Below, one piece after another: positions 5,227 through 49,234 of a stretch of 64,000 bases of DNA. Source of the stretch: Dactylonectria macrodidyma (lineage: Eukaryota > Ascomycota > Sordariomycetes > Hypocreales > Nectriaceae); contig JAGMUV010000012.1 in assembly GCA_020744425.1 (NCBI GenBank), positions 1,550,001 through 1,614,000 on the forward strand, in the 5' to 3' direction. Under the pieces are notes generated by a model, which searched no databases, was not told the origin of the DNA, and was given only the letters and a program-made list of their open reading frames with translations. The translations under genes and the position numbers were made by a program. Each line of letters starts with the position of its first letter. Position 1 is the first letter of the stretch.

Positions 5227-5435
5227 GGGGATGGTGACCGATTGGTGACCTTGTCAGACCGTCTCTTAGTCGAATATAATAAGAGAAGAGGGAATTTCAA
5301 CAAAGAAGGAGATTTGCGACCGAGGCTTCTCCTCTGCGGTGCTTATATAGGCTGCCGTCTACCTTCCCAGGCAGCCCTTGATACTAATCCTCGGGTGATT
5401 GGGGGTCTGTCACATCTCGGGATATCGGATTTCTA

Positions 5436-5712
5436 TGCTTAAGCTTTCCTTCTGTCATCATAGGCGTGCATAGCCACTTGCCTCGTCACCGGCCTCGTCA
5501 TCAGCTTCATCACAAGGCTAGCTTTTCCTCTGATCAGGTGAATAGCTAGACAAAGTTAAATAGTCCGTAGCATCCGGACTGTCTCGGCTGTCCGAGGCCA
5601 TCCGAGGTCATCATCAGTCTCTTCGTCTATAAGACTGACCCAAAGACCATCTTTAGATAGGAATAGCAACAGCTTCTCACACACATGATCACTTCCATCT
5701 GCTAGATGCAAC
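5436..5712 (+). repeat. Dispersed repeat, copy A (about 275 bp)
   Basis: This segment matches 29868-30137 in the same orientation over nearly its whole length with scattered substitutions. Shared blocks include CATCATAGGCGT, GCCTCGTCACC, CTCGGCTGTCCGAGG, TTCGTCTATAAGACTGAC and GCTAGATGCAACA. No open frame is shared and no terminal inverted repeats were recognised. The match stops on both sides, so this is a discrete repeat unit rather than part of a larger duplication. Confidence 0.8.
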
Positions 5713-6041
5713 AGGATCCATGTCGGAGCTTTCGCCGCTTGTAACAACACCGGAAGCCTAGACAATTGTCTACTATAAGCCTATAACCGCTAGGACATGG
5801 GCTTCGATCTTTTGAATCAGAACTGCGTTTCACAGATCGTCGCAGATGAAGAGCTGGAGTCTCGCCAGGTATGGCGAGACACTACATCGTCAGTTCAGTC
5901 TCTTACCACCGTCTCGCATTCGTTTGATTCAATAGCGACACTGGACGCCAGTTCTTCACAGCTCTCTTATACCTACTTGCTGTGACACCTTGTAGAACCA
6001 CTATCTCCTTTCCCTGTTCCTACGCCCGGGTTTTTATCACA

Positions 6042-9000
6042 ATGGCTCGAGAAGAGAAGGTCGTGGTTCCGATGGCCGAGATCCGTCGTACCATAGAGCA
6101 TCTCGATCGCCGGCGCGCTCCAAACGCAGTCCAGAGACGACCCTGTACGTCTCCTCCACCAGCCGTTCCGCCAAATGACTCTATAGAGCCCACTGAGATT
6201 ATCATGCGCCGTGCTAGGACGGCCAGAGTTCCTATGGATGAGGTCTGTCGTACGATAGAAGATCTCGACCGTCAACACGCTCGAACCCGATCGCAGCGAG
6301 ACCAAGGTGAGTCTCGCCCCGTTAGCCAGTCCCGTAGACAAATCTACCCTCTCCGCTGATACCGTCATGCTCTATCTCAGAGAGGGTCATAGTCCCGATG
6401 GATGAGATACGCCGCACCATAGAAGACCTAGATCGTCGGCACGCTGGAAACAGAGCGCAAAGAAGGCGAGAGCCGTCTCCACCGCCAGCCATTCCCCCGA
6501 GTAGGTCTACGACAATTTCCACTGACATTAACGTTCTCCACGGGAAGAAGATCAAGGTCCCGATGGATGATATTCGTCGCACAATGGACGATCTCGATCG
6601 TCGACGCGCTGCCAACACAGCACGAAGAAGACGACTTCGGTCTCGGACGCCGGTCATTCCGGCACCCGTCACTACGACACCCTCTGATAGCAGCATGCCA
6701 CGTATAAGCAAGGTCAGGGTCCCACTGGATGAGATCCGCCGTACGATGGAAGTCATGGATCGCCAACGTGCTGATGCGCAAGTGCGTCAAAAACAGGAAT
6801 TGCCTCCAAAGATCTTCCTCGGCTCCCGGACCGATCAGACTGCCCCGAGACCCGGAAGGGACGTGGCCCAAGTCTCAACTCACCAAGTCTTCGGTGCATT
6901 GCATGATCTGAACCGACAACATTCCGAAGGGCCGGGCGGCATAATACCAGAAACGGCCCCACCAACTGTGGCTGCGGAACGGCACGAGCCGCTCAGGGTC
7001 CCCCTTCACGAGATTCGCAGCACGGCGACAGACTGGGACCGCCAACGATGGCTAGACCGACAGCGACAAAGATCCGAAGCGGCTCAACGACGAGCCTCGG
7101 GACGACCCGCACAACGAGCGAGGCAACAAAGTGAGGATAGATCTACATCCGAAAGTGCTGCCGACCCGGAGCCACCTGCGAGAACACCTGCGGTACGGAG
7201 AGCGAGGATGCCTGGGCAGCCTGCGGCTCCGATGGTGGACGTGGATCCGCTTCCCCAACCCTTAATCGTCCCGCCTCCTAAGAAAAAGCGTCGGCTCACG
7301 CGTGAAACCATCCAGCTCCAACGAGCATCCATACACGCTTTCCTCGAGCAGCTTGATGCTTGTTTTGACCAAAAAGAGGAAGCTTCGCGCACACGATCCT
7401 GGTGCAAGGAGATCCCTCTCCCTCTCCAGATAGAAACTCCGATGTCGTTTTACCGAGCCTTCACAGACGACAGGACGATGCCCACCTCGCATTGCACATT
7501 CTGCTATGGGATGGTTCCCGCCTGCAAACTCGATACCATCCACTGGAAGGCGCACCGGATACCATCACTGCTACATGCTACAAGGACAATTCAGCACTGC
7601 TACAGGTGCCTCCCATCACAAGGAAAATCAGATGTCCCTGTTTGCTCCGAATGCCACGCCTCTTTCGTAAAGGGGAAATTGCCGAAGGCCTGCTCGGTGA
7701 ATAACATGGACATCGGATGCGAGCACCAGTACCCCGAGGAGCTGAATGATCTCACCCCAGTGGAAGAAAAGTTAATCGCTCTCCAAAGCGCGTTCGGTTA
7801 CATCACAAAGTTCACAGTCGATAGGAAGACACGATCGGGCATCAGCTACCGGAAGCATATCAAAGGCCACATTGTTGTGTTTCCGAACAGGGTGGAGGAC
7901 CTAGTTGCGGCGGTTCTCCCTCACCCGCTCCTGCGGACTATCGAGAACATCCACGTCTCTTGGAGCGGCGCTAGCAAACCCGAGCCGTCAGATGTTGGAT
8001 ATCTTCTTCGAGTCCGTAAGGCTCGTATCAGTGCTGCCCTGTCATGGCTCCAACGAAACAACCCGCTCTACAAGCACATCACCATCGACCATGACGAGAT
8101 GGCCAGCTGGCGCTACGCGGAGGGGTCCAGCGTTCCTACTGTCATTATGGAGAGCATGCAGAGGGAAGAACCATCAGCTATGGAAAAGACGGCGACGGAC
8201 CATATAGTCCCAGACACAGACCGAGGCTTAGAGGACGGCGGATTCACCAGCATCGAGGACCTCGTCGCCTCACTAACCAGCGACTCCATCGACCAACCAC
8301 GCCCCTCGGGAGAACCCACCGCGGCCCCTAGACGGAGACAACCTGCGGAGCCATCGGCTCACGTCCTCGCCGATGCACATGCCGATCGTGCGGCGGATAC
8401 CGTCTACGAGAACGTATCATCCGCCATGTTCCCCATTGGCGGGCCGGCTGCTTTCGAAGATGCTGACAAGTTGTCGTTCCTGGTTGACGCGATGCAGAGG
8501 GCGGAGGACCAAGATCCAAAGCAAACCGAAAAACACCGGATTGACGTGCAAACCGCAGGAGACCAGCCATTTATCAGGGTCGAACACGGCGCGGAGTTTG
8601 CGGACAACCTACACACAGATTTCTTCCCACGGACCTTCCCGACACTCTTCCCGTGGGGCAGAGGCGGCCCAAAGGCACAGCCTAAACAAAACATCGACCC
8701 TGCTGAGCCCACCCACAACCACTCACTCAGCTACTGGGCCAGATATGTACTACAACGACACGGCGGCCGATTTGCGACCCACCCAGTCTTTTGTTTCTTG
8801 ATTTTTAACACCTTGCTCAGATCGTCCAACCGTCGAATCAGCATGCTTCGCATGTCGAGGCGCTCATTCGAGAAAGTGGAAGAGGTCTGCGCAAGTTTGA
8901 CAGAAGACCGACTAAAGCGAGCCATGGAGGACATGCGCCAAACAGGATCCACTACAGACCAAGATATCATGATGCTGCTCCGTGAGCTATTCGTCTTTGG

Positions 9001-12000
9001 CCACGCCCAGCCGCTCTCAAACGAAAGCCGGCTTCTCATGCGAAGGAAGATACAAGCTCTCTGTATCTGGATGGGCATGCCTGCCATTTGGTTTACTATC
9101 AATCCGAACGACATCAACAACCCTGTAAAGATGAAGCTCGCCATGCACAGGATCCACGACCACGGCAAGGCGAAAGAGCTCCTAGCGGATCTACAGCAGA
9201 GATACGACAGGATCGCCCTCAGCACCATGGATCCGGTCAGCTCCGCCCTCTTCTTCCACCGAGAAGTCTCTTTGTTCTTCGAGAAATATGTCAGAACAGG
9301 CGAACAATCCGTTTTCGGAAAGATTAGCCACTACTACGCAACGGTGGAAACCAACGAGCGTGGCAGTCTGCACTTGCATGGGCTGCTGTGGCTGGAAGGA
9401 AACTTGGGACTACCATCCCTGATCGACGATATGGCCAACCCCAGCGAGTCCGAATACCGTGCCAGCGTAATGCGCTACGTAGACTCTGTCTATCATGAAT
9501 GCCTCGACGAGAAAGCTGGGAAGGTGACCCGGCAGGACAGGAAGCCCATCCATCCGGTCGCGGAAATGATGAACAGCAGTAACGCGTTAACAGAGTCCTT
9601 TGAGGATGAGTCCAACTACATTGCGTACTGTTGCCAGGTCCATTCTCACACCTACACATGTATCAAGTACTCCCTTCAGGGCCTCGCCGAAGGGGAAGTG
9701 AACGCGCATCGCAGGACCACCTGCCGATTCAAGGCACCTTGGAAGACGGTCGAGCGCACAGGCTTTACGACGGACGGTTTGCTCGAGATCCGTCGGAACC
9801 ATCCCTTGGTCAACCGATATAACAGAGCAATGGCGGTTGGCCTCCGCCACAACCACGACGTCTCGCCTATCTTGACCAACACCAAAGGGCTTGCCATGAT
9901 ATATTACATCACCAACTACGCGACGAAGCTAAATACACCCATGTGGAAACGGCTTGCCTTTGCAGCCGATGTGCTTCAACGACGTCACAACTCCAGCGCC
10001 TTGATGCAGCAGCCACCGGATGCTGCCCCGAACGACAATCATCGATCCACTGTGCGCAACGAGACCCGGCAATTTTTGATGAGGGTTGCCAATCGTATCT
10101 TCTCCGAAAGAGAGCTCTCTGCCGTAGAGGTCTGCTACCACTTGCTCGGCCATCCTACGGATTTCACAAATGTACCCAACTGGTCGTTCCTACACTTGAA
10201 CACGCTGTATTGGGCAATCTTCCGGCGCTGGCCCCACCTCCGCCGTCTAGCCGGCCTAGAGACGGACACAGAGGAGCCCCTCGAGACGGTGAATCTCAGG
10301 GAGCAGGGCCGCACTCTGTCCTACTTCGAGGCGTACCCATGCAGGGGCGCACTCCTTGCGCATCTATGCCTCTACGACTATCTTTCCATGATTCACTTGG
10401 TGCCCCGGAAGAACCGTGACGACGACGAATTTCACATATCGCTAGACAGCCTTTCCTCAGACGTCCCTAACTGGATGCAGAAGCTTCGACGGCCCCATGA
10501 ATATGCCGTCCCAATCTTCCAAGGCTTCATTAGCGACGATCACAAGGATGACGATCCAGACTACTTCAAACGGTGCGACCTGGCCTGAGAGTTTCTGCGG
10601 CCATACTGCTGACACTTTTGACAGAAATTCTGTCCTTCACCTCGCCTTATTCGTGCCCTGGGAATCATTCCTGTTCAGCACTGACGGCGACATTACCAAC
10701 ATTTGGTCCCATCACGAAGCTGCCCTTTCCCCCCGCCTGCGTTTCTCTGTCTCGAACATCTCGCTTCTCAGGAAGTCAGCCGAGGATGCGCGCAAAGATG
10801 CACGGCTTTGGGCCAACAGATCCGAGGGCGAGGATACAGTCGATGTGAATTTCCCTCTGCCTGACGCCGACGACGGCCAACCCCCTGTGGCAACCGCTGA
10901 GCACCACCAAACCTACGTGGCTGTGATCCAGACTTTGCAGAATGCCATACGCAATTCCGATGCCACCAAAGACTCTCCTGTCCTGCGGGGTCTAGTCCGA
11001 GATCTGCGGCAAGAAACCCTACCCGAGGAAGGTCGGCCGCTTGCCCAACGTCACGAAGGCTTTTATCCACAAATTCGACGCAATCAGGACAGCCCCCTAA
11101 GCCACCATCTAACGCCTTCACCAGAGGATATCCAGGCTGCCGCAAGAGCCCAACACATGTTACATCTCCGAATGCTGGATGATATGGAGACTGGCCCCCA
11201 AGGAGACACATGCTCCATGATGAACACCGACATCGATGACATGCTAGATCGGCACCATGATACAGAGATTGTGCCACCCTGTCTGAATCAAGACCCAGTC
11301 ACGCGAGTCTCTCGGATGACCATCGATATCGGCCAAACATCCAGCTTCGTAGAACTCGGCCACCGAGCTGCTGCCCACTACACACTCAACTATCTACAAG
11401 GCATGGCCCTCCAGCTTATCTGCAGATCTCTGGACAAGTATACCGCGAACCCCGACGCCACGGAACAACACCTTCAGTACGTTGGAGGCCCCGGCGGCAC
11501 CGGAAAGTCCAGGATCATCGATGCCCTCAAGCACGTATTCGCTGTGAGAGATCAGCAGCATCTTCTTCAAATCACCGGCTCGTCCGGCAGTGCGGCGGCG
11601 CAAATTGGTGGGACTACGGTCCATTCCGCCTGCGGGCTAGACACCCATCGTTCTTCGAACGAACAGCTCCCTCGCTTCTCGGAAGCGAAGAAATGGGCGT
11701 GGAAGCAGAAACTGGTCTTCGTAATCGATGAGATCAGTATGCTAGGGGGAGCCACCTTTTTCAAAACCCACTGTCACCTCCAGGCCCTCCGCGACTGCTC
11801 TGATAAGCCATTCGGTGGCATTCCTATAGTTCTCTTAATGGGCGACTTCTATCAGTTCGCGCCCGTCCTAGAGACAAGCCTTCTGGTCGACCAAACACTG
11901 GATCTCGCTTCCACCACCTCTCTGGGACAGAGGACCATTGCACACCATCGCGGCTACAATATGTGGCTACTGTTCAAGACTGTTATTCTGCTCGAAGAAC

Positions 12001-12953
12001 AAGTCCGCGCCGGAGACGATCCCGAACTAGTAGCCTTCTTGAACAGAGTACGCGCTGGGACGCAGACCATGGAAGACCATGACCTGCTCAACACAAAACT
12101 CGTCGACCGCTCCCAGATCACCTTCAAAGATGGCCTGCGCGCCATAACACCCCTCAATCGTAACCGATGGACCCTCAACATGGAAGCCATCATAGATTGG
12201 GCCCGGTTTCATAGGAAACATATCTCGGTTTTCGTCTCCGCTCACACCTGGCGATCCACTGCCTTATCTCAGGACGAGATCGCGCAGACAATTGGACAAG
12301 GCGACGACTCCCACTGCAAGATCCCGGGTATCTTCTTCTACGCCCAAGGAATGCCTCTCGTGGTCAACCAGAACATATACACCGGCTTGAAGGTTGTGAA
12401 CGGCGCAGAATTCACTGCTACAGACATTATTCCTGATCCAAAATACCCAGGGTACCATCTTGCCGACGACGTCACAATCCATTTCGGACCGCCGCTTGGC
12501 ATCCTACTACAGTCGAACGAGACAAAGGGCGTAGCCATCCCGGGCCTCCCAACAGGCATGATACTTATTCGGCCGATCTCATTCTCCTTGAGTCCCATCG
12601 ACCGCCACTTCAAGTTCTTATCAGCGAAATGCACTCGCAAGGGTTTGCCAGCTGTTACGGCATTTGTCATTACAGACTATAAAGCACAAAGCAAGACCTT
12701 TCCACAAGTACTCCTGGAGCTGCGGGGAAACCGCATAGTCAATGGCCAGCCTTCAAGGTGCGACTTCACAAGTCTCTATGTACAGCTCTCGAGATGTAGA
12801 ACGTTGGAAGGCATAAAGCTTCTCAGTCCCGTTCGGCCGCAAGATTTCATCGGGAACAAACTCGACCAAAAGATACTTGACGCTATGCAGAGGTTGACAC
12901 ATCTCGCGGCAGAAACGCGGCGGGCATTTGAGGCCCAGCAAAGCCATCTATAG
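6042..12953 (+). CDS. Helitron RepHel transposase/helicase, apparently intact
   Basis: Three exons are inferred: 6042-6306, 6381-10572 and 10625-12953, giving 2261 aa with consistent phases. Exon 1 starts at ATGGCTCGA. Residues 1-340 are basic and carry a repeated 18-residue motif, consensus VPMDEIRRTIEDLDRRHA. A Cys-rich segment follows near residues 460-530 (CTFCYGMV, CYRCLP, CSECH). The Helitron-like N domain starts near 873 (RHGGRFATHPVFCFLIF), and the HUH nuclease motif HLHGLLW is near 1085. The PIF1-like helicase has Walker A GGPGGTGKS near 1773, Walker B VFVIDEISML near 1847 and SLYVQLSRC near 2201. The second intron lies between the Rep and helicase halves, and all three RepHel genes in the window share its position. 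No stop interrupts the spliced frame, so this copy may be autonomous; element termini were not defined. Confidence 0.93.
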
Positions 12954-18602: not shown

Positions 18603-20448
18603 CCATGCCCCACCCCCATTTCGGTAACCAAAAAAATCGCCTTCCCATACAAAACTCACCCAGTTCACTTACATAGATTTCAGTCATTCTTGAACCTATT
18701 CGCAAGCCGTCGCCTTCAACATATAAAGAAATGGCTATAGCTTTATTTTTCAAGGTCAGCTGGTTACGTGGGACCGGTGGTCCGTGGTCACCCTGCACTT
18801 CAAAATTTGCAATCCAGTGCCCGAGTCCCCTCCTGCCTACTGACGATTCCTCCTCTTGCCAGTCCTCCACAATTCACCTAAAATAGCTTCAAAACGGCCT
18901 CGGAGTGTTTACACGGAGGATGAAATGGCTGATGCTATATTTGACATCATAGAAAACGGCTTATCGCAACACCATGCCGCCCAGAAATATGCCATAAGCC
19001 CGTATAAAGTTGACCTTGTCAACAGGTGCAGAATCAGTCAGAGAAGCCAGTTTTTCAAGCTCTTTCCGATATGCCGCGTTTGAAGCATTAAAAGCACCGT
19101 TATCCAACGGCTGGAGACCATGGGAACAATGGGCAGAGAGGTAATGACAGTAGACGTTGTTCAAAAGCACGTTACAATCCATTCGTCATGTTTCAAATCA
19201 ACATTGATTCTTTGGCATATAAACAAAAAAGCGCACCGTTGCATGACTTCCATGTCCATCCAGAATAATAAACCTGGCATCAGATTCGTCGGCGGGCTGG
19301 GTCTGAGGTAAACAGACTCTCTCAAGCCACTCGATAGCAATGTGGTTGTCTGTCCACCCATTAGGGGAAGTGATATAATTCCAATCAGCAAATTTCCGGA
19401 ATTCCTCCAAAACCACTGCTGTTGGATTTCCTTGCCCTTAAATATGATGCCAGGCGTCAAAACATGGCCGTCCGCAGTGATAGCCTCAATAAATGAAGTC
19501 CGGTTACGGGACTGGGGACCCTTGAGTAGGGCCTTTCGTTTTGGATCTGAACTCCCAACCACCAGGCTATCCAGACCTAGCAAACAAGCTTAACTAACTA
19601 TCTCTATGAATAAAAAGTTAGACGCTCACCAAAACCGGTCATAATACCGCCCTCATCAACGTTCACGGTGTTTTCCGGCTTAATCCACCCATCTCCTTTT
19701 CCCTGATATCAAAGTACCAGTGCACCGCTTTCGGAGTGAATGAATTGAATCTGTTAGCCTCTTGGCGTCTCTCAGGTTTGATCTTGAGCTCCGGATGGCG
19801 TTTGATGAATTTGGCCACCAACTTGCGTCCCAATTCCTGCTTCTTGTTTTGTTGTTTCAAGAGGGCCACGCAACAGGCGCGGATCTGACTGTAGGAGGGA
19901 GCATAACCCAGGGACTCTTGACGAAGGAACCAGGAGGCTAAATTAGCCTCCTGATTCCTGGATAAGTGTCGATTAGGCTGAACCTGATCATCCAAGACTG
20001 TCTGGCTATGGAATCTGGTGGAAATGGTCTGCTGAGGTATGGCATATTTCTGGGCGGCATGGTGTTGCAAGAAACCGTGTTCTATGATGTCAAATATAGC
20101 ATCAGCCATTTCATCCTCCGTGTAAACACTCCGAGGCCGTTTTGAAGCTATTTTAGGTGAATTGTGGAGGACTGGCAAGAGGAGGAATCGTCAGTAGGCA
20201 GGAGGGGACTCGGGCACTGGATTGCAAATTTTGAAGTGCAGGGTGACCACGGACCACCGGTCCCACGTAACCAGCTGACCTTGAAAAATAAAGCTATAGC
20301 CATTTCTTTATATGTTGAAGGCGACGGCTTGCGAATAGGTTCAAGAATGACTGAAATCTATGTAAGTGAACTGGGTGAGTTTTGTATGGGAAGGCGATTT
20401 TTTTGGTTACCGAAAGGGGGGGGTTACCGAAATGGGGGTGGGGCATGG
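18603..20448. mobile_element. Fold-back derivative of a pogo element
   Basis: The element is bounded by TA (18601-18602 and 20449-20450) and inverted termini CCATGCCCCACCCCCATTTC. The two arms, 18603-18996 and 20038-20448, are nearly identical inverted copies about 400 bp long, including the first 40 or so codons of a transposase. Between them lies the rest of one transposase in minus orientation, cut off before its C-terminus. The native 3' end has therefore been replaced by an inverted copy of the 5' end; the inner junction has a short TATGGC-type microhomology near 18990-19000. Confidence 0.85.
18990..20178 (-). pseudogene. pogo/Fot1 transposase, frameshifted and truncated
   Basis: The frame from 20178 encodes an N-terminal helix-turn-helix domain (EDEMADAIFDIIE, HHAAQKYAIPQQTISTR) and a CENP-B-like second DNA-binding region (LGYAPSYSQIRACCVALL). 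Then come the DDE core blocks VNVDEGGIM, ILDGHGSH and LQPLDNGAF. One frameshift lies near 19690 just before the first aspartate block and another near 19416. The protein stops being recognisable after APVDKVNFIRAYG (about 19000), where the inverted arm begins. It is related to the intact copy at 59198-60931 but not closely. Confidence 0.85.
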
Positions 20449-22266: not shown

Positions 22267-24631
22267 CTAGACTAGAACAACGTCTGAGTATGTCTCGGGG
22301 GCATCAATCACCTCCTCATCTCCATGCAACGACTTTGAGCCAATCACCAGCTTGCCCAGCCTCCTGAATCGTTTGCCCCCAGAAGGCGTTGGGCTCGCCG
22401 AGGCGACAGCATCCACAATGAGTGTGGTATATGTCCAGCCCTCCTTGTCAGAATCGGCATTCAAAGACTGCGTCTTTGACAGAACCAGCGCGAAGAACTC
22501 TTTCTCTAGCGCCCATCTTCTCGTTTCCTCCGCCTGCCCCAAGACCCCATCGAAGCTCGAGTAGACTCCGAACGGGTCGCCCTGGGGCGAGCATAGCCGG
22601 ATGTTGTGGCGAAAGCCCTCCGGCAGCTCCGCCTCGTCTCGCTCCGGCAGCTCGCTCAGATGTAGCTTCAGCATGGGAGCTCTCAGTCTGACCCAGCCAT
22701 CCGTCAGCTCTCCAAACGGGTTTTGGTCGTTCTTCAGCGTCACGCTCCAGTCAGTAGCCGTCGCTACGTCCACCCAGCCCAGTCTCGCTGTTCCGTGCGC
22801 CGACTGCCCACTATATGACGCCCAGCTCCACGTCGGCGCGATATATCCTGTCTCTCCTGACAGAGGTAACTCATCTGGTAAATGGTGGTTGTGCTTTTTC
22901 TTGCCAAGACTTTGCCAGCCTAGACCTTCCACGATGGCGTCACTCCAGAGTCCAGCTACATACTTGATGCCAGCTATGGTTTCAATGCCACCATCCGAAG
23001 CCCTTTTGGCCCTCAACTTTCCCCTAATGAGACTCGCCAACCCCGAAATAGCCGGAAGCTGATCAGTTTCCAAGGTCATGTTCCGCCCCGTAAAGTTTGC
23101 TAGAATAAAGTACCACAGCTGGTGAATTTCACTGTGTCTAGACATGCAAGCAATCTGGTTAAACGACGGCTCAGGTTCTTGATATATCGAGTTCCAGCGA
23201 CCCGGGACCACAGCGCCGTCTTCTGATACAAAGTGGCTATTACACTCAAAGAAGATCTGATCAGATGCGAAGTGTAGTATCCGGTATGCAAGAAGACGCT
23301 CCTGGAGAGCCCAAGCTCTGGACATGAGGGGTTCATCGAGAAGCTCAAGTAAAGTGCGATGAGAGATAGCTGGAAGCGTAGGAGCATTACATGCTAACGC
23401 GGGGATGGTCGTGGACCCCTGGTCAGCTCCCTCATGCGGAGATAAGACAGCCAACTTCACAGGTACGTAGTACCTTTCTTGCCTTTGGAAAATGCCCTTC
23501 GTTGTGCTGTCGGCGCCATCGGCAGCAATCACTAAGTGGGCCTTGGCGTAGAGATCCCCCATAGCTGCGGATTCCCGTGCCCAGTCGTCGCCGTCGTCTT
23601 GGCAAATACATAGCGAATCGATCCAGAGGTATCTAATGCCAAGACGACGCGTGACTTTGATAGCATCTTGGAATGTTTTCGGGAGGCTCCCCACCGCAAC
23701 GCCGCTAACATAGTCTGAAAGGGTATCCTGAGTCATCTTTATGTGCCCTGAGGTATTGGTTCCCCAACAGTAGCTGAGCGCGATGTAGCGACCTTTCTGG
23801 CTGCCGTCGGTTTCGACAAGACAGACCATGTCCAGATCATCGAGAAGATTGAGGTCAATGACGCGGGAGGGCAACACGCCGGATGGAGGCTGACAGCACT
23901 GGTGGTTCGTCACACAATCATCCAGCCAGCTGGATGCCAACTCCAAAGGCACCTCAGCTGCGGCATCTGGGCCAATTTTTTGACTTGGAATGAAGCTAGA
24001 GTATTCTAGTCACACGGGGCGTCCAGTTAGCATTACTACCGCAAAGCAATCAAGGCAAGGCATACATACCGCGCTCCGCAGAGAATCCGATCACGGCGAT
24101 CAGATATAAAACGCTGTCTCTATTGCTCTTTGTAAGAACCGAAAATCCATCGCCTCCATCAAAGCGCTGCACGATCTTGAAAGTTGATTCCACTGGCAAC
24201 CCATGGCCTCCGCGCTTGATCTGAAAGTATTTCTCGACTGAGCCTGGCTCTACCTCTCGGAACTCGGCAACCAAGCCCTCAAACTTTTGCAAGATGAGCC
24301 TGCAGAGAGGACAGTCGCGTGAAGATTGCGTTAGAGAATCAAGGCTGGAATGATGTGGCAAGCCAATTGTGTCCCAGGAATCCGTCGCATCTCGACTGAG
24401 CTGGAAGTAATATGTAGGGGAGCGAGTGTCGATAAGCCCAACGAAATACCGCCAGGACTCTGGTAAGATGGGCAGTGTGGACGGAACTGAAAAAGCAGCC
24501 CGGCAATAGGAGCAAGCCGACATCCCTGAAGGTTGCTCGGCAAAGATAGAAAGGTGGCGTTTGGGCTGCGGAGGTTGTCTCCGTGATTGCTGAGATTGAG
24601 ACAGTTGTTGATCGCGTGATAATTTGATCAA
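22267..24631 (-). CDS. HET-domain protein (heterokaryon incompatibility family)
   Basis: Two exons, 24631-24070 and 24005-22267, join through a 64-nt intron (GCG|GTATGT donor, TGACTAG acceptor) to give 766 aa without a stop. The HET domain is at residues 230-400: YIALSYCWG, LPKTFQDAIKVTRRLG, YLWIDSLCICQDD, WARESAAMGDLYAKA. These are the three conserved HET blocks. The N-terminal exon has SACSYCRAAF and RDCPLCRLIL, a Cys pattern common ahead of HET domains. A second possible start (MSACSYC) lies 36 codons in. HET proteins in ascomycetes trigger or modulate non-self recognition and cell death on hyphal fusion; the partner of this one cannot be read from sequence. It is an intact gene isolated between transposon clusters. 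Confidence 0.92.
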
Positions 24632-40300: not shown

Positions 40301-40500
40301 TGAATAATTGAGCATATATATAGTATCTACCTTCCTTACCTACCTTATCTTCTACCCACCATCTACCCACTACTCTACCCATCACTCTACTCACAACTCT
40401 ACCTACTCTACCAGGGTAGGGTAGAGGAGACCACTCCTCTACCTGGGTAGGGTAGAGAAGTGGGTAGAGCTCCCTCTACTCTACAATGCCCAAGTATGGT
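37352..40500 (+). mobile_element. Second hAT element with CTCTACC-rich ends
   Basis: The ends are inverted repeats starting ACCATACTTGGGCATTGTAG; the right end has one extra TAGAG. Inside, both ends carry clusters of CTCTACCC/GGGTAGAG words (37366-37475 and 40350-40480). The 8-bp flanks do not match: the left side is the interrupted hAT gene and the right side is a Helitron gene. The element therefore sits at a rearranged junction or has lost its duplications. Confidence 0.75.
37841..40283 (+). pseudogene. hAT transposase with a single nonsense codon
   Basis: Exons 37841-38809, 38857-39501 and 39549-40283 (two 47-nt introns, all phase 0) give 782 codons before the final stop. The protein has a BED finger (HYCIACWDNKKK, then HLRLNHPSLW, residues 75-110) and the hAT core (DIHISTDIWTSPARKAYL near 225, GYHTGDNATSNDT near 300). 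The C-terminal dimerisation region is ITPLQWWLVPEQRRRYPRLH near 680, then APSSAEPEQQFSGAR. The only lesion is TAG at 39079-39081 in HEQA*RRGSK, where TGG would fit; that is one G-to-A change. The rest is undamaged, so the copy died recently. Confidence 0.88.
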
Positions 40501-43500
40501 CCGCAGCTCGGCTGAGGAGGCAGACGAGAGGCATCGTATCGAATCAGGCAATGCAGCCGAGGATGATGAGAGGCAACAGGAGCCTCACACAGCAAAGGCT
40601 GCCTCAGCCTCGACATTTCGGTCTATTTTGCCAAAGGAAGCGCGGAGGATAGGTGAAGATGAAGGAGGAGGAGCAGGGGCGGGATTGGGTGATTGCCGCG
40701 AGGAGTGGTCCCACGGACACAAACGGCAGGTCATCCCCGGTCTCGTCCGTCGCACCAGGATCAGGCGAGGTCGTTCAACAGCGAGGACTGATGGAGGACG
40801 TGATAGAGGACGTGATGGAAAACGTGATGGCGGCGTCGACCGAACCAGGGCTCCGCTGCGGCCAATCCAGCCAAAGGCAACCACCGGGTTCCCCGAAACT
40901 GGAGAGCTTGTTTACCCAAGCCCTGGGCCGACTCAACGAATCCAAGAGGCTGACGCACCCGCTGAACCTGGCCGTGATGGCACGCAGAAGAATCTCGACC
41001 CGGCGGACGAGAAGGGGAACCATTCTAACCGACGCACTGGAGAACCGAGTATCCGAACTCAGGCATTCATTGCTGGGGGAGGCGCCCTGCGGACCCTACG
41101 ACCTAGGGAGCTTGACCCGGAGAGAGCAGGCCTGCATCGGGGACCAGCTGATACTCCCCCAGCGCCGTTTGGGTCTAGGCGGCGCGGTGCGCGGCTGGGA
41201 GGAGCGCCAGAACAACAGGCATGGAGACACATCGCCCCGGCGACGTCACCAGCGTCACGGGAGGTCGTGACAGTGCCAGGACCCGTCCCAGAGTTAGAGA
41301 TAACATCGACCTCGAATGCATCCCGGCGAAGGAGGACGACGACGACGAATCAGGCCGCCGGAGAAGGGCGATCAGTGAAACGGGTTCGGTCAGGCGTCCG
41401 CAAGGAAAGAACGGAAGAAGAGAGGAGAGAGGATCTTGCCAGCGTGTTGCGCTGCCTAGATGAAGAATTCGCCGAGAAGGAGCGGCTGTCCCACAACAGG
41501 GAGTGGTGTACGCCAGTCCCGCACGAGAGGAAGGTGTCCACGGCGCAGGCGTTCTACAAAGCTTTTCATGACGCCGAGACTTTGCCCTTGTGGATATGCA
41601 TGGTGTGCTATCGGAAGCGCGGGAAAGGAGAGTTGGAAAGTATAAAATGGGACCGATGGCTGTCCAGGCTCACGGAGAACAGCGACAATCCCTCCTCGCC
41701 CCTTTCCTGCCGCAAATGCTTCCCCGTCGGCAGCGAAGTTTTGGCCTGCCCGGAATGCATAAGTTACCTCATGAGAGGTTGTCTGTCAACCACTGCCCGG
41801 CTGCACGTTCGCTTGGGATGTGAGCACATGTTCCCAGAGGAACTTAAAGGCCTGACCCCGGTTGAGGAGAAACTCATCAGCCTCAATTCATGCTACGGCT
41901 TTATCACGAAGTATAACGTCGTGGATGGGCAGCGTCAGGGTGTCACATACCCCAAACACGTCAAGGGACATATCACGGTGTTCCCGAACAATGTCCAGGA
42001 GCTGGTCACCAAGGTCCTGCCTCATCCCCTCGTCAAGGTCATGGACGAGATACATGTGGCGTGGCACGGTACGCAGAAGCCGGGACCGAGCGATTTGGCG
42101 AGACTTCTGTCCGTGCGGCGTCGGGTTGTCGAGAGGGCGCTGGTTTGGCTGCAGAGAAATAACCCGCACTATCGGGACATTGAAATCAGCGGGGCCGAGA
42201 TGGACAGCTGGGGAGCTCCGCCTCACGGGGTGCCGTCGCAGATCCTTCAGCGCATGGAGCGTAACGAACCGTCTGCCTGGGAAAAGGTGCGCACAGCGCA
42301 GATCGTGCCGCCTGCGGAGCGCGGGATAGATGATGAGGACGCTGTGGACATCGACGAAGTCATAGCCATGCTGAGGCGGGAGCAACAAGAAGAGGCCGAG
42401 TGTCGTGATCAGGAAGCGAGTCGAAGCAATGAAGCACTGTTCAGTGACGGAGACAACGGCGCAGCGAACGGAGACCGTCGGGGCGCTCAGCTCGAAAACC
42501 CGGAGGCGGTTATCCACGAAGTCAGTTCATCCGGGATGTTTGCGCTCGACGCCCAGCCGGATGTTGCGGACGTGGAAAGGCTACGATTTGCCTGGGAAGC
42601 TATGGGCGAGGACGAAGAACAAGAAGCAGGGCACGCAGCCGGGGAGCAGAGGAGAACGGGGGGCTGGGCAGGATCGGCATCTGTACGGCAAGGTCTTGGC
42701 CTGGAGCCATATATTTCTGTGTCTCGGGGCGACGACTTCGCCGAGTCATCCGACCCCTTCTTCTTTGCAAAGACGTTCCCGAGCCTGTTCCCATTTGGCA
42801 CAGGCGGCCCCCGGCTTGCAGAGGAGAGCACCATCATCGCCGGAGGCGTGGCAGAGGCCGGCATCGAGGAAGGGGCTGAGGCGTCTGCGAGGAGTCTCCT
42901 GTCATCACGGAACATGAGCCTCACTGCATGGGCTGAGGCGGTACTGAGGCGCCATGGCGGCCGCTTTGCAACCCACCACGTCTTCGCCTTCCTCGTTTTC
43001 AACTTGGGCGTGAGGTCGAGGAATCGCCGGGTGAGCATGCTGAGTGTGTCGCGGAAAGATTTTCCCGCCGTGGAACGTATGGTGCGCTCCTTGGGCCGGG
43101 AGAGGTTGGAGCTGGCTCAGCGTGAGCTCGAGCTTTCCGGTCAGACCGCGGATGAGGGCATCAAGGAGCTGCTCAAAAGCCTCTCGCTATACGGCTTCCG
43201 GCAGCCGATGTCGAGGGAGCATCGCCTCAGCCTGCGACGCAAAATCAGGTCTCTCATCATCCGGTACGGCATCCCCGCCATCTGGTTCACGCTCAACCCG
43301 AACGATATAACCAGCCCGGTCAAGCTACGACTGGCTGCATACCGAACCCACGACCCAGAAGGGGCTGAGGCTTTCTTGAGAAGCTTGGACATGGCTTACA
43401 AGCGGGCGCGACTGGCCATCTCCGACCCGGTGAGCTCGGCCATCTTTTTCCACAGAGAAATCTCACTGTTCTTCGAGCACTACGTCAAGGTAGGAGAGGA

Positions 43501-46500
43501 GTCGGTCTTTGGCCGCGTCAGCCAGTATTTCGGGGCCGTCGAGACCAACGAGCGCGGGGCGCTCCACGTCCACGGGCTGCTGTGGCTGCAAGGAAACATG
43601 CAACTGAGTTCGGTTCTGGCGGACGTGCGAGGCGAGGAGGGAGCCTCGTATCGTGACCGTATCGTCGAGTATGTGGATAGTGTCTTCTCCGAGGTACGTT
43701 CTCGCCATCATTACAGTAACGGCCGAGCGCGGCCCCCCAGCCCCCCTTCTAGCGAAGATAGTCTCCCCCCTAAGCTAACGGTTTCGCAATGTGAACAAGC
43801 AGGATCTCGATCAGGAGGCTTTCTACGCCGTTCGAGCAGACAGATCGGTAACGTCAGACATATCACGACTGGTGCAGGATAGTCAACAGTTCGCTGCGTC
43901 CTTTGACGAAGAGGCCAACTTCTGCGCCGGAGCAACACAGATCCATACGCACAGCCCGACGTGCGTGAAGTACTCGTTGGGAAAGCGCGGAGGAAAAAGA
44001 GACCTCTGCCGCTTTAAGGCTCCGTGGAAGTTGGTCGAGAAGACGGCATTCGACCCGGACGGAGTGTTGCGGATCCGACGCACGCATAGCATGGTGAACC
44101 GGTGGAACAAGGCAATTGCCGTAGGGCTCCGGCACAATCATGACATCTCATTCATCGCAACGCAGTGCAAGACCATGGCGCTCGTCTACTACTTGACGAA
44201 TTACGCGACCAAAGTTGAAGATCCGGTGTGGAAGCGGGTAGCGGCCGCAACCGAGATGCTGCATGCGCTGGGCGGCGAGCATGGGCAAGATCATGCGACG
44301 GATTCGGGGAGCGTGGCCAGACAGTTCCTGATGAAGGTGGCCAACCGGGTGTTCACAGAGCGACCTCTGTCACAGGTCGAGGTCGCCGCGCATCTGCTTG
44401 GATACCAAACCGACTTCTCCGGCAATGCCGCGTGGACGTTCGCGAACGTATCCGTGCTATACTGGCACGTTTTCCGACGATGGCATCACCTGCGCCATGC
44501 GAGCGGCGAGGAGGCTGCGGACGGCGAACCAATGAACGACGCCGTGCTCGTGGAGCAGGCAGGTCAGAGAATATCCTACTTTGAGGCATACCCTTATCGC
44601 GGAGAGATGCTCCGCGGCCTGTGCCTGTACGACTACATGTCACTCGTGACGCTGAAGCGCAGGGCCAATGCAGGAGCATCCGCCGCCGCATGGAGTGAGA
44701 TACCTTTCCGAGACGCTGCGCCGTTCTCGGACAAATGGGTGCAGAGTCTGCGCCGGCCAGGCAAGCATGCTGTGGTCTGTCTGGACGGATACCTAAGCAT
44801 GGACTTCTCTCAGGATGACGTTGATGGGCCATGCCACCGGAGGTTCGTACAGCGTACACCATTTGAACCTCAAAATTCAAATAACCTCACTCCTCCTCCT
44901 CCTCAGCTGACTCTGCTATTCTAGGGCTGCTGTGCAACACTTAGCTCTGTTCGTGCCATGGGAGTGCTTCCTATCCGAGTCTTCGGGTGACATCAACGAT
45001 ATATGGACGAGGCAGAAGGCGGCGCTGAGCCGGAGGCTCCTATTTATACTCGGCAACATCCAACTGCTCAGGCGATCAGCGGAAGATGCAAAGCGCGATG
45101 CCAAACAGTGGGCTGCGTGCTCCGGAGATGACGAACGCACGATCGGTGTTATGGAGTCAGGAGATGGTGATGGAAGCGTGAGCGACAGAGACGAAGAAGC
45201 ACGAGCCGCGTACCGCTGTGATAACATCGGGAGTGCCACGCGACTGATCGATGTCTTGAGGAGCGCCGGCGATGCAAATCAGATCACGGCCGGCTCGAAG
45301 GAGCTCTCGGAGATGACACAGAAGCTCTGCCGATTCCAGCACGCCGCTTTGGTCTCAACGGCCGAGCTGCGTGCCCAGATAGCAGCCGAACGGGGCGTAA
45401 GAACCGTGTCTCTGCCGGGAGGACCGTTCACCGGGGCCGAGGTCCCAGCACAGAGGCTGCTGAAGTCTATCAAGTCACAGCAGACAAGCGCTTCGAGAGA
45501 GACAGAGAAGATGATCCAGGGGATCCAGGGTCTGAGCAACAGAAACGCAACGCGTCGCGACGCAGCCGTAGACGCTGTACTGAGCGGGTTCGGAGAGCAA
45601 GACGTCCAGCTGACCGCTGCAGACACTGAGGAGAGCATGCTAGATGACGGCCCAACGGTAGGCGTCCGGTTCGGGCCATCGACATCCTTCCTGGCGGCGG
45701 GGAGGCAACTGGCAGAGCGCTTCACACTCAATACAAAGCAGTCGGTTGCCTTTTTGCTAGTCTGCCGCCAGCTTGACCTAGTACATAGTGGTGAGAGCAC
45801 GCACGGCCAACCTGCTCCCCAGCTATGCCAGTTCATCGGCGGCGAAGGCGGAACGGGAAAATCGCGGGTCATCGAGGCGCTCGTCGAGCTCTTTGCAGGC
45901 AAGGGGATCCTAAATCGCCTGCTGGCCACAGCGACCTCGGGGACTGCAGCGGCTCGCATCAACGGCATCACAATCCACTCGGCCTGCAAGTTCTCCAAGG
46001 ACGCATCGCGAATGAGCGCCAGCTTAGACAAAGGCAGCGACGGGATTGGGTCCTCCAACTCATCCGATCGCTACGTCAATGGCCCAGCGCGAATGGATTG
46101 GCGGGAAAAGTACCTGCTGATCGTCGACGAGGTCAGCATGCTCGGAGCGCGCACTCTCTACATGGTGAACGAGCAGCTGTGCAGGCTTCGAGGGTCCCCA
46201 GAGGATTTTGGAGGTATCCCCATAGTCCTCTTCTGCGGCGATTTTCACCAGTTCCGTCCCGTGCAGGAGAGGTCAATCCTGCTCCCCAGTTCAGCCATCT
46301 CGTGGCTCGAACAGGATTCCTTCAAGGTGGAGCACAGACACCAGCACGACAAGGCACATGCCCTATGGAAGAAATTCACCACCGTCGTCATGCTGGATGA
46401 GCAGGTCCGCGCCGCCGGCGACCCGGAACTGCGAAGGCTGTTGGCGCGGATTCGGCTCGGAATCCAGGACCAGTCGGATGTCGACCTGCTCAACGCTCGC

Positions 46501-47364
46501 TGCTATCAGGAAGGCAGGCGGATCCCGTGGGAGTCGGGCATCACGGTGGTGACACCACTCAACAGAAACCGGTGGAACCTGAACATGGAAGCCACTCTGG
46601 CCTTCCAACGGCAACATAAAGCAACACTGCGCATCTTCATATCCGACCACAAGTGGAAGGACGGCCAGCCGACGGAGGAGGAGGCCCTCATGATGCTCAA
46701 CCACGGCGACGACAGCGCCATCCCAGTGCCGGCCGTCTTCATGTTCGTTCCCGGCATGCCCATAGTCGTCAACAATAACACGCACCAGGGCCTGAAGCTC
46801 GTCAACGGGGCCAGCTACACGGCCTTGGACGTCATCGTCGACAAGGCATACCCGGGACACCAGATCTCCGCTGATACGATACTCCACTTCGGCCCGCCGG
46901 CGGGGATCCTCCTGGCGTCCGAGACGACTCGGGACTTCCACTTCGTCGGCATGCCGCCCGGGACGATCCTGCTGACGCCAATGAGCATCAAGGTGGAATG
47001 CCAGCGGAAACGGCCGTGGCAGCAGCACGACGTCACTCGGAAGGGCCTGCCGTGCACACCGGCCTTCGCGTGCACCGACTACAAGGTCCAGGGGAGAACA
47101 TTGAGCCGGGTGGCACTGGAACTGCGGGGGACCAGGACAACTAACATCGATGGTGAGGGGGTGCCCAGCCAGTGCGACCCATACAGCCTATATGTGCAGC
47201 TGTCACGCTGCCCATCGCTCGACGGCATCATGCTCGTATCGAAGGTGCGGGAGAGGGATGTAGTTGGCAATAAGATACCCACCGACATGGCAGCTGCGGA
47301 GGCTCGGCTTGAGGTGCTCAGTGAGAAGACTGTCGGAGACGCTCTAAGCTGGTTGGATGGGTAA
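40496..47364 (+). CDS. Helitron RepHel, third and diverged copy
   Basis: Exons 40496-43693, 43803-44842 and 44925-47364 join through introns of 109 nt (GAG|GTACGT to AAGCAG) and 82 nt (AG|GTTCGT to TTCTAG) to give 2225 aa. The second intron is at the position conserved in the two other RepHel genes. Domains in order are a Cys-rich segment (CMVCYRKR, CRKCFP, CPECIS), a Helitron-like N region (RHGGRFATHHVFAFLVF), the HUH motif HVHGLLW near base 43567, Walker A GGEGGTGKS near 45840, Walker B LLIVDEVSML near 46120 and SLYVQLSRC near 47190. The sequence is GC-rich and well diverged from the other two. The first ATG in this frame lies inside the hAT end (40496). The first 250 codons are Arg/Gly-rich, and the +1 frame at 40653-41270 looks more protein-like, so the true N-terminus is uncertain. 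Confidence 0.88.
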
Positions 47365-48403
47365 TAACGTATACGACCTATATGATTGGGGTGGGCTAGG
47401 AAGAAGGAAAAAAAAAAAAAAGGGCTTGGTGATGGATTCACCAGCTACGCCAAAAGTTCAGGGTGCCCGCTTATTGCTATAGCTAGGATTAATCCGATAC
47501 ATAATCCAACACTTGGTTAAATAGAACGTATGGTAAAATAAACACAGTGTTCGTTCCCAGCATTCACAAAGCAATTATGAGTAGCGCATAGAGAAACTAT
47601 GCGGGAAGCATAGAAAGTAGTAGGGTTCTTGTAGAGATCGTGAGCGCACGAGCCAAGCATAGTAAGGACACGGTGTTGGAAGAACCGAGAGTTCCCCCTC
47701 AGTTTCAGGACTAAGATTAAAGTTTGAAATCCTACGATTAAAGTTTAAAGTCCTAGCTACGATCACTTAAAGATATAAGGCCCCAAGGGCCTCTCATTGC
47801 GATCATAATAATTTAACCGTGAATAATTACAATCATTCTACAAGAAGAACTGCCTTTTGTCGGATACGAGGGTGGTAAGTCAAGATGAATGAAGAACAGA
47901 TCAGTGATTGATTCAACTCTGTCTCGTCGTCTTCTTCCTTCCTCGTCCTCATTATATTCGACGAGACGAGGCTGTGATACTAGACCTGCCGAACCTGCAA
48001 CAGATCTGTAACACCACTCTGACTCTCGTGGTGCACTCTTGTGACAATCTGGGTAGAGGCATATGCAACACCTTTTATCAAAGTGCACTCATCATCCCTG
48101 TGCAATCCAACAACACACGGAAGGGAGATTATGAGCGGCCAATATAGGTATAAAGCGAGCTCGAGGCATACCCGCCACCAATCAGATTGGAGGATAGGAA
48201 GACGTTAAAGACTAAGGGGGCTCTCTGCCAATTCGAAGACGACGAGCGGGCCAATCAGAGCGAAGCTCTTAAGTTCGGGGGCAACGGCATAAGACCTCTC
48301 GTCACTTCGTTCGTTCCTCTCTTCGTTCCTCTCTTCGTTCCTCAAGGCATAGGCTATCTTGACCACGTAAAGTACAGCATTTAGCACCCCTTCTATGGCC
48401 TTC
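47365..48403. other. Gene-free stretch after the third RepHel
   Basis: No gene is seen. It holds an A run (47409-47422), a short repeated word GATTAAAGTTTRAARTCCTA (47714-47757) and a 14-bp tandem TTCGTTCCTCTC at 48306-48345. The stretch from about 48009 starts TGTAACACC and could be LTR-derived, but I could not define ends. Confidence 0.4.
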
Positions 48404-48581
48404 TGTCAGATACATCAGAGGCGAAAGTTGCCACCTATTGCCACCTATTGCCACGAGGCTTAGCAATCAGCTTCTAGCTGATTCTATACAGAAGAGAAAG
48501 GGTATATAAAGCTTGCTCTGAAACCTCAAGACATAGGGGCAGAAGAGATAATAATAAAAATTTCCACCCTAATATTTGACA
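48404..48581 (+). repeat. Solo LTR, plus orientation (178 bp)
   Basis: It starts TGTCAGATA and ends TATTTGACA, as LTRs do, and holds a TATA box (GGGTATATAAAGC near 48504). Within it GCCACCTATT is repeated. Its direct flanks are CCTTC (left) and AATTT (right), which do not match each other but do match the flanks of the inverted copy at 48864-49040. Confidence 0.85.
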
Positions 48582-48863
48582 AATTTATTATTCGACGCTC
48601 ACGTCCATTTTGGCACGGCTCTGAGCGACCTACTATCTTATACGCTTGCAATCGCTGGCGTCAAGGCTGCCAATTTTCAATCCTAGCCAAAGAAGACTCT
48701 TATGGCTTGTGGCATCTCAAACATGCACTGAAGCCCGATTTTCCCACCACAACCATGGGCCCCAGCAGCCCCGAGAGCCCCAGCAGCCACGAGAGCCCTC
48801 AATACTATTAACTGAACCGCTAGAGAAGAAATTGCCTACCTGGAGCAAATGTCATATAGAAGG
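48582..48863. other. 282-bp segment inverted between two solo LTRs
   Basis: Reading this segment in reverse would place CCTTC after the left LTR and AAATT before the right LTR, restoring a 5-bp target duplication for each. It contains a short Pro-coding tandem (CAGCAGCCCCGAGAGCCC) and no convincing gene. Confidence 0.75.
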
Positions 48864-49040
48864 TGTCAAATATTAGGGTGAAAAGATTGTGTATTATCTG
48901 TGCTCCCCTATGTCTTGAGGTTTCAGAGCAAGCTTTATATACCCTTTCTCTTCTGTATAGAATCAGCTAGAAGCTGATTGCTAAGCCTCGTGGCAATAGG
49001 TGGCAATAGGTGGCAACTTTCGCCTCTGACATATCTGACA
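48864..49040 (-). repeat. Solo LTR, minus orientation (177 bp)
   Basis: It is the inverted copy of 48404-48581, identical over long blocks (CTATGTCTTGAGGTTTCAGA, TATATACCCTTTCTCTTCTG). Flanks are GAAGG (left) and AAATT (right). Confidence 0.85.
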
Positions 49041-49234
49041 AAATTTATAGCCACCAATTGCTGCGTAAATTGCAAGATCTAATGCAAGGTCTTCTTGTGA
49101 ATTATAAAGCTGTTGAGGTGGGAGGTCCATCGTGGGTGCTAGCCATTACAGGGCCCTTAGGGCACTTGGAGGGGATTTATAGGGGGCTATTGCTGACTAA
49201 TCAAACCAGCGGTGCGTGTACGTGTACGGGGCGC
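49041..49234. other. Unassigned sequence
   Basis: No gene is seen between the LTR and the integrase fragment. Confidence 0.35.

What the first reader, a model, noticed from the sequence alone, without database searches (positions are those of the whole stretch)
48404..49040. Inversion between two solo LTRs proven by swapped 5-bp target duplications
The left LTR has flanks CCTTC/AATTT and the inverted right LTR has GAAGG/AAATT. Neither pair matches as it stands, but reversing the 282 bp between them gives CCTTC-LTR-CCTTC and AAATT-LTR-AAATT. Two independent perfect 5-bp matches are very unlikely by chance. This captures homologous recombination between inverted solo LTRs.
Basis: seen in the sequence. 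Interest (0 to 1): 0.75.

Follow-up and report, generated by a model that had tools for sequence, protein, structure and literature searches.

The report
Small inversion between inverted solo LTRs
In a fungal genome, two leftover retrotransposon ends pointing in opposite directions recombined and flipped the 282 bases between them, and an unflipped, element-free copy of the same sequence elsewhere in the genome shows what it looked like before; this is a very clear case of a well-known process.

Summary
The LTRs sit in a short repeated element, and another copy 62 kb away on the same contig (C4:1661707-1662215) lacks both LTRs, has each 5-mer once and carries the 282-bp segment in the opposite orientation. 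The predicted uninverted empty sequence matches it at 508 of 509 positions. All 12 further copies keep at least one junction in the uninverted order. Of 15 family units without perfect TSDs, only the window pair match reciprocally. A third line favours exchange inside the LTRs: of 101 other LTR copies, one and the same (C20:705269) is nearest to the left LTR's 5' part and to the right LTR's tail; few sites, so supportive only. The mechanism is known: the same signs were used for Drosophila Galileo inversions (PMC2775673). A new, unusually well documented member of a known kind. Untested: raw reads and other isolates. Species inferred: Dactylonectria macrodidyma.

The parts
48349..49222 (+). 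Remnant of a short terminal-inverted-repeat (MITE-like) element that hosts both LTRs; 48349-48403, 48582-48863 (inverted) and 49041-49222 are its pieces
   Evidence: Matches to genome copies; 508/509 match to C4:1661707-1662215 after un-inverting
48399..48403 (+). CCTTC, outer half of target duplication 1
48404..48581 (+). Left solo LTR (178 bp, TG...CA), Ty1/copia-type family
48582..48586 (+). AATTT, inner half of target duplication 2 (now inverted)
48582..48863 (-). 282-bp inverted segment of the host element
   Evidence: Opposite orientation to both flanks in the empty paralogue C4:1661757-1662038 (281/282 identical) and in diverged copies
48859..48863 (+). GAAGG (= CCTTC reversed), inner half of target duplication 1
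48864..49040 (-). Right solo LTR (177 bp), opposite orientation
49041..49045 (+). AAATT, outer half of target duplication 2
48415..48539 (+). Interval of the left LTR within which the exchange would lie if both LTRs are now mixed (identical between the two LTRs)
   Evidence: alignment; chimera comparison (inference)
48905..49029 (-). Matching exchange interval of the right LTR
   Evidence: alignment; chimera comparison (inference)

Best explanation
Two copies of a Ty1/copia-type LTR retrotransposon inserted 277 bp apart, in opposite orientation, into one copy of a short inverted-repeat element, each making a 5-bp duplication (CCTTC and AAATT). Each was reduced to a solo LTR (before or after the next step; not resolved). 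The two LTRs then paired as inverted repeats and exchanged strands inside their near-identical 5' three quarters, flipping the 282 bp between them and swapping the inner halves of the target duplications. Shown: the swapped duplications, the flipped orientation relative to other copies, the empty uninverted paralogue. Inferred: that the exchange was a homologous crossover within the LTRs, and the order of solo formation and inversion.
For: Swapped 5-mers. Empty, uninverted paralogue on the same contig, 508/509 identical to the predicted ancestor, against a much worse alignment score for the window's present order (1014 v. 460). Of 13 copies of the host element examined, that one included, 13 of 13 have at least one junction within 3 of 29 mismatches of the uninverted order (upstream 12 of 13; L035 has an indel there and matches downstream exactly); the window's order differs by 8 or more of 29 at every junction. 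Family-wide, 27 of 39 solo-like copies and 21 of 24 paired full-length copies have perfect 5-bp TSDs, so TSD loss is the exception (one duplicated locus, C19:37272 and C20:1023478, counts twice among the 27). Full-length copy L050 carries copia-type domains. C20:705269 is nearest of 101 other LTRs both to the left LTR's first 120 bp (119/120; next 118/120) and to the right LTR's tail (55/57; next 52/58), and its 'CA' at positions 10-11 occurs in only 2 of 82 5' tips, itself and the left LTR.
Against: The comparison is with a paralogue, not an allele from another isolate; no reads or second isolate were available. The chimera evidence rests on two adjacent bases plus a hypervariable tail; 'CA' could arise from the commoner 'CG' by one transition. 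At LTR position 114 both window LTRs have T while C20:705269 has C, so a simple crossover between an exact C20:705269-like parent and a T-type parent does not explain that site without gene conversion or a different parent. The left LTR's tail has no close match (best 52/58), so the other parent is not identified. In one truncated host copy (L044) the downstream junction fits neither order (14 v. 13 mismatches).
Confidence: 0.86

Rival explanations
1. The flip is real but arose by replication-based template switching or annealing between the two inverted LTR arms rather than by a reciprocal crossover.
For: Arms are identical over 125 bp and the LTRs only 282 bp apart, a geometry that can form a cruciform or stall a fork (general knowledge, not tested). 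The shared T at position 114 fits copying from one arm.
Against: Predicts nearly the same sequence product; nothing here separates them. Both breakpoints lie inside the LTRs with no loss or gain of flanking bases, which a plain crossover explains without extra steps.
Confidence: 0.1
2. The inversion is an assembly flip, or only one of two orientations present in the culture: an assembler misplaced the 282 bp between inverted repeats.
For: An assembly flip between the arms would produce exactly the same swapped TSDs and mixed LTRs, so cannot exclude it.
Against: The assembly has 77 contigs for 77.3 Mb, with contigs of several Mb, as expected from long reads, which span 640 bp easily. That this strain was long-read sequenced is inferred: the paper looked at for it (PMC8664821, passages) names neither Dactylonectria nor macrodidyma in its main text.
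Confidence: 0.03
3. Aberrant integration joined two cDNAs crosswise to two cut sites, giving an inversion and swapped duplications in one step.
For: It would also give exchanged TSDs; a related 'hybrid element insertion' route is discussed for cut-and-paste transposons in PMC2775673 (passages).
Against: I know of no LTR integrase that does this (recalled); it would not make chimeric LTRs, whereas C20:705269 matches the left 5' part and the right tail best; and both reductions to solo LTRs would still be needed.
Confidence: 0.01
4. No inversion: two independent insertions without TSDs whose flanking 5-mers match by chance.
For: Five intact-looking solo-like copies elsewhere, at 4 distinct loci, also lack perfect TSDs (my reading).
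Against: About 1e-6 to 5e-5 by chance, and the paralogue directly shows the opposite orientation.
Confidence: 0.0005

Closest known systems
Drosophila buzzatii inversion 2z3 generated by the transposon Galileo (PMC2775673; abstract and passages seen)
   Same: Opposite-orientation element copies at both breakpoints, exchanged target duplications, one copy of each target in the non-inverted arrangement, chimeric copies argued from comparison with other family members
   Different: There a chromosomal inversion by a P-superfamily cut-and-paste transposon, compared with non-inverted chromosomes of the species; here 282 bp, solo LTRs of a retrotransposon, and the non-inverted reference is a paralogue in the same genome
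Solo LTRs of Ty1/copia retrotransposons formed by LTR-LTR recombination (general knowledge, recalled)
   Same: Single LTR, internal region absent, TG...CA ends; 27 of 39 solo-like copies flanked by perfect 5-bp TSDs
   Different: The window pair lack their own TSDs because the inner halves were exchanged by inversion

Membership tests
Solo LTR of a Ty1/copia-type retrotransposon | LTR with TG...CA ends that also brackets full-length elements of the same family | tested here: met
   24 full-length pairs formed, 21 with perfect 5-bp TSD; e.g. C32:354597-362047 (AGTCC) and C29:198833-206795 (AGAGG)
Solo LTR of a Ty1/copia-type retrotransposon | Integrase region upstream of reverse transcriptase in the internal region (copia order) | tested here: met
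   L050, the one copy scanned: SH3_retrovirus and Pol_BBD above Pfam cut-off, gag_pre-integrs and rve (integrase core) below cut-off, all in the ORF before RVT_2 (115 bits, cut-off 31.6); an unrelated DDE_Tnp_1_7 insert lies between. The integrase-core match itself is weak
Solo LTR of a Ty1/copia-type retrotransposon | 5-bp TSD on insertion | tested here: met
   48 of 63 insertion units perfect; 16 unpaired LTRs left out
Solo LTR of a Ty1/copia-type retrotransposon | Primer binding site complementary to a tRNA or to the element's own RNA | not tested
   5' LTRs are followed by a recurrent ATTAAGAGTCT string and 3' LTRs preceded by GGGGGTG or variants; the primer was not identified
Inversion by ectopic recombination between inverted copies of a mobile element (signs given in PMC2775673) | Element copies in opposite orientation at both breakpoints | tested here: met
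Inversion by ectopic recombination between inverted copies of a mobile element (signs given in PMC2775673) | Exchanged TSDs, each target present once in the non-inverted arrangement | tested here: met
   (paralogue, 508/509)
Inversion by ectopic recombination between inverted copies of a mobile element (signs given in PMC2775673) | Both copies chimeric | tested here: inconclusive
   Favourable: same copy C20:705269 nearest of 101 to left 5' part and to right tail, but few informative sites, one of them (position 114) not explained without conversion, and the second parent not found
Inversion by ectopic recombination between inverted copies of a mobile element (signs given in PMC2775673) | Non-inverted orthologous allele in other individuals | not testable with these tools
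   No relatives of this genome are held in the genome tool
Mutator-like MITE (host element) | Long TIRs and 9-bp TSD | tested here: inconclusive
   TIRs of about 100 bp; of 8 copies whose two ends are shown, exact 9-bp flanking repeats in 5 (L034, L036, L037, L041, L045), one mismatch in L042, none in L038 and L039; the superfamily name is recalled, no transposase was linked

The most novel reading that the evidence does not exclude
The inverted solo-LTR pair is a small natural flip switch: the 282-bp segment inverts repeatedly, so both orientations coexist among nuclei or isolates, and exchange comes with gene conversion between the arms (suggested by the shared T at LTR position 114). More broadly, at this locus structural change runs far ahead of point mutation: by inference at least six structural events (two insertions, two reductions to solo LTRs, one inversion, one Helitron insertion) against one substitution in 509 bp since the split from the empty paralogue.
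Probability: 0.12. Interest if true: 0.5.

Novelty: new member of a known kind. Interest (0 to 1): 0.36.

Why it matters
Exchanged target duplications plus an almost identical uninverted, empty copy in the same genome make this a near-complete record of an LTR-mediated inversion, with before and after states 62 kb apart. It suggests that short retrotransposon remnants (125 identical bp, 282 bp apart) suffice for inversion in a filamentous fungus, and that scanning solo LTRs without TSDs for reciprocal 5-mer matches is a cheap way to find such events. No open frame of 180 aa or more lies in 48404-49040, so I see no gene changed.

Tried and rejected
Chance match of flanks: rejected. Element not an LTR but a MITE or TRIM: rejected, a full-length copy carries copia-type pol domains. 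Other reciprocal TSD swaps in the sampled family: none besides the window pair among 105 pairs of TSD-less units; one single-sided match (C14:729109 with the window left LTR, AATTT) taken as chance. Gene conversion inferred from the contrast between the near-identical body and the divergent tail: dropped, since the tail is hypervariable across the family. A second inverted repeat in the window (18613-18996 / 20038-20421, 99%) looked at as a possible second event: it looks like the ordinary long-TIR build of a repeated element, arms and interior recurring together at other places. The host element's left end beyond the Helitron: not found in the window. tRNA scan of the window: none. Literature searches for the same signature in LTR elements or fungi (listings only; one search found no paper) showed no title on this locus; most subscription papers are not in the library. 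One search (listing) gave no genome paper for the inferred species that I opened.

Full report
What was claimed and what is there. Searches confirm every letter: CCTTC-[48404-48581 +]-AATTT ... GAAGG-[48864-49040 -]-AAATT. Read in its own direction, the left LTR has CCTTC before and AATTT after; the right has AATTT before and CCTTC after. The exchange is reciprocal and exact.

Decisive test inside the genome. The window lies in an assembly of 77.3 Mb in 77 contigs (G000, contig C4). Searching it with the spacer, the left flank and the right flank separately shows that all three belong to one short repeated element. One copy, C4:1661707-1662215, 62 kb to the right on the same contig, holds the three pieces next to each other with no LTR, and with the spacer in the opposite orientation relative to both flanks. 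I built the predicted state before insertion and inversion (left flank, reverse-complemented spacer, right flank, one copy of each 5-mer) and aligned it with that copy: 508 of 509 positions are identical, no gaps. The one difference is a C/T in the spacer. The present order of the window aligns far worse (score 460 against 1014). Thirteen genome copies of the host element (L033-L045), this one included, were checked at both junctions by best ungapped 29-base match. The upstream junction is within 3 mismatches in 12 of 13 (the exception, L035, has an indel there, 8 mismatches, and matches the downstream junction exactly). The downstream junction is within 5 in 11 of 13 (L040, 7 v. 14 for the other order, and L044, 14 v. 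13, lose the homology there). At every junction the window's order has 8 or more mismatches. So the uninverted order is the family's order.

The LTR family. I fetched all places listed and located 103 LTR copies with their flanks, the window pair included. After sorting by the neighbouring strings ATTAAGAGTCT (after a 5' LTR) and GGGGGTG or variants (before a 3' LTR), there are 34 5' LTRs, 30 3' LTRs and 39 solo-like copies; 24 full-length pairs could be formed and 16 LTRs stay unpaired and were left out of the unit counts. Perfect 5-bp TSDs flank 21 of 24 full-length pairs and 27 of 39 solo-like copies; two of the 27 (C19:37272, C20:1023478) share flanks and are one duplicated locus. Two of the three failing pairs differ by one base (read). 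Of the 12 failing solo-like copies, 2 are the window pair; by my reading a further 5 look intact (C14:729109, C21:460315, C22:110952, and C35:50366 with C39:299196, which share flanks), four are truncated or diverged (C2:1530849, C20:157476, C28:348116, C62:12755) and one is probably a 3' LTR (C37:167499). The counts are lower bounds because the searches score only the best candidates. Among the 15 TSD-less units only the window pair match each other on both sides. The internal region of L050 has SH3_retrovirus and Pol_BBD domains and sub-threshold gag_pre-integrase and integrase-core matches ahead of RVT_2, the Ty1/copia order (name recalled), with an unrelated DDE_Tnp_1_7 transposase inserted between.

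Exchange inside the LTRs. If the LTRs exchanged strands, each is now a mixture: left 5' part from parent A and tail from parent B, right the reverse. Among 101 other copies the nearest to the left LTR's first 120 bp is C20:705269 (119/120; next 118/120), and the nearest to the right LTR's tail is the same copy (55/57; next 52/58). A direct search with the right LTR's last 63 bases also puts it first (97%, next 91%). Its 'CA' at positions 10-11 is shared only with the left LTR among 82 5' tips. That is what parent A should look like, and it argues against crosswise integration. Limits: the 5' assignment depends on two adjacent bases, 'CA' may come from 'CG' by one transition, both window LTRs have T at position 114 where C20:705269 has C, and parent B is not identified (the right LTR's first 120 bp are identical to those of C32:354597 and C32:361872, the two LTRs of one full-length copy, but the left LTR's tail has no close match). 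I count this as supportive only. The exchange interval, if the ends are mixed, is 48415-48539 / 48905-49029.

Setting and timing. The host element is cut off on its left by sequence that looks like a Helitron end: the window has Helitron-type ORFs at 40460-47364 (Helitron_like_N, DUF6570, PIF1) and the stretch up to 48348 recurs at other places joined to different flanks. On its right the host homology stops at 49222. Complete copies have inverted ends of about 100 bp and, in 5 of 8 copies with both ends shown, exact 9-bp flanking repeats (read), which recalls Mutator-like elements; that name is from memory. Only one substitution in 509 bp separates the window copy from its empty paralogue, so both insertions, both reductions to solo LTRs, the inversion and the Helitron insertion appear young; gene conversion between the two copies could also have kept them alike, and I have no clock.

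Organism. A HET-domain protein hit named Dactylonectria macrodidyma lies on a contig of 4,754,684 bases, the length of G000 contig C23, and its sequence maps to C23 at 100% over residues 148-727 and 96% over residues 1-159. I infer that G000 is this species (Nectriaceae).

Known or new. PMC2775673 (abstract and passages) gives three signs of ectopic recombination for the Galileo inversion 2z3: opposite orientation, exchanged TSDs, chimeric copies. The first two, and single targets in the uninverted arrangement, are met here; the third is favourable but inconclusive. It is therefore a new, unusually complete member of a known kind. Remaining doubts are an assembly flip or mixed culture, which would give the same letters, and the exact recombination route; reads across 640 bp would settle the first.

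Noticed in passing
window 22267-23952 (-): HET-domain (heterokaryon incompatibility) gene 96% identical to a protein named Ilyonectria robusta but 79% to the protein named Dactylonectria macrodidyma, which maps to this genome's own contig C23; possible transfer between genera or an old kept duplicate.
   Followed up: partly
window 6398-12953 and 40460-47364 (+): Two Helitron-type ORF sets; Helitron_like_N and DUF6570 in 6398-10588 and 40460-43882, PIF1 in 44932-47364 (10497-12953 was not scanned).
   Followed up: partly
window 48299-48348; L046-L049: The putative Helitron 3' end carries a variable number of 12-bp TCTCTTCGTTCC-like repeats; copies at C4:522628, C4:816931 and C4:668832 end in the same CAAGGCA before different flanks, while the C27:153324 copy ends earlier and then joins a flank (CAGGGGAAGG...) also found at C4:816931.
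   Followed up: partly
window 18613-18996 and 20038-20421: 384-bp arms, 99% complementary, about 1 kb apart: apparently a long-TIR repeated element whose arms and interior recur together at other places.
   Followed up: partly
L050 (C32:354300-362300), about 3863-5880: Pieces of a DDE_Tnp_1_7 (piggyBac-like, name recalled) transposase lie inside a copia-type element.
   Followed up: no
L094, L122, L128 and others: Several LTR copies differ by C-to-T and G-to-A changes (TGTT.. or TATT.. starts..AATA ends), looking like repeat-induced point mutation (name recalled), while the host-element pair stays 508/509 identical.
   Followed up: no
C35:50366 (L064) and C39:299196 (L076): Two solo LTRs share the same non-matching flanks (CTTTAAT / AGAAGCC), so one TSD-less solo LTR probably lies in a duplicated region.
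   Followed up: no
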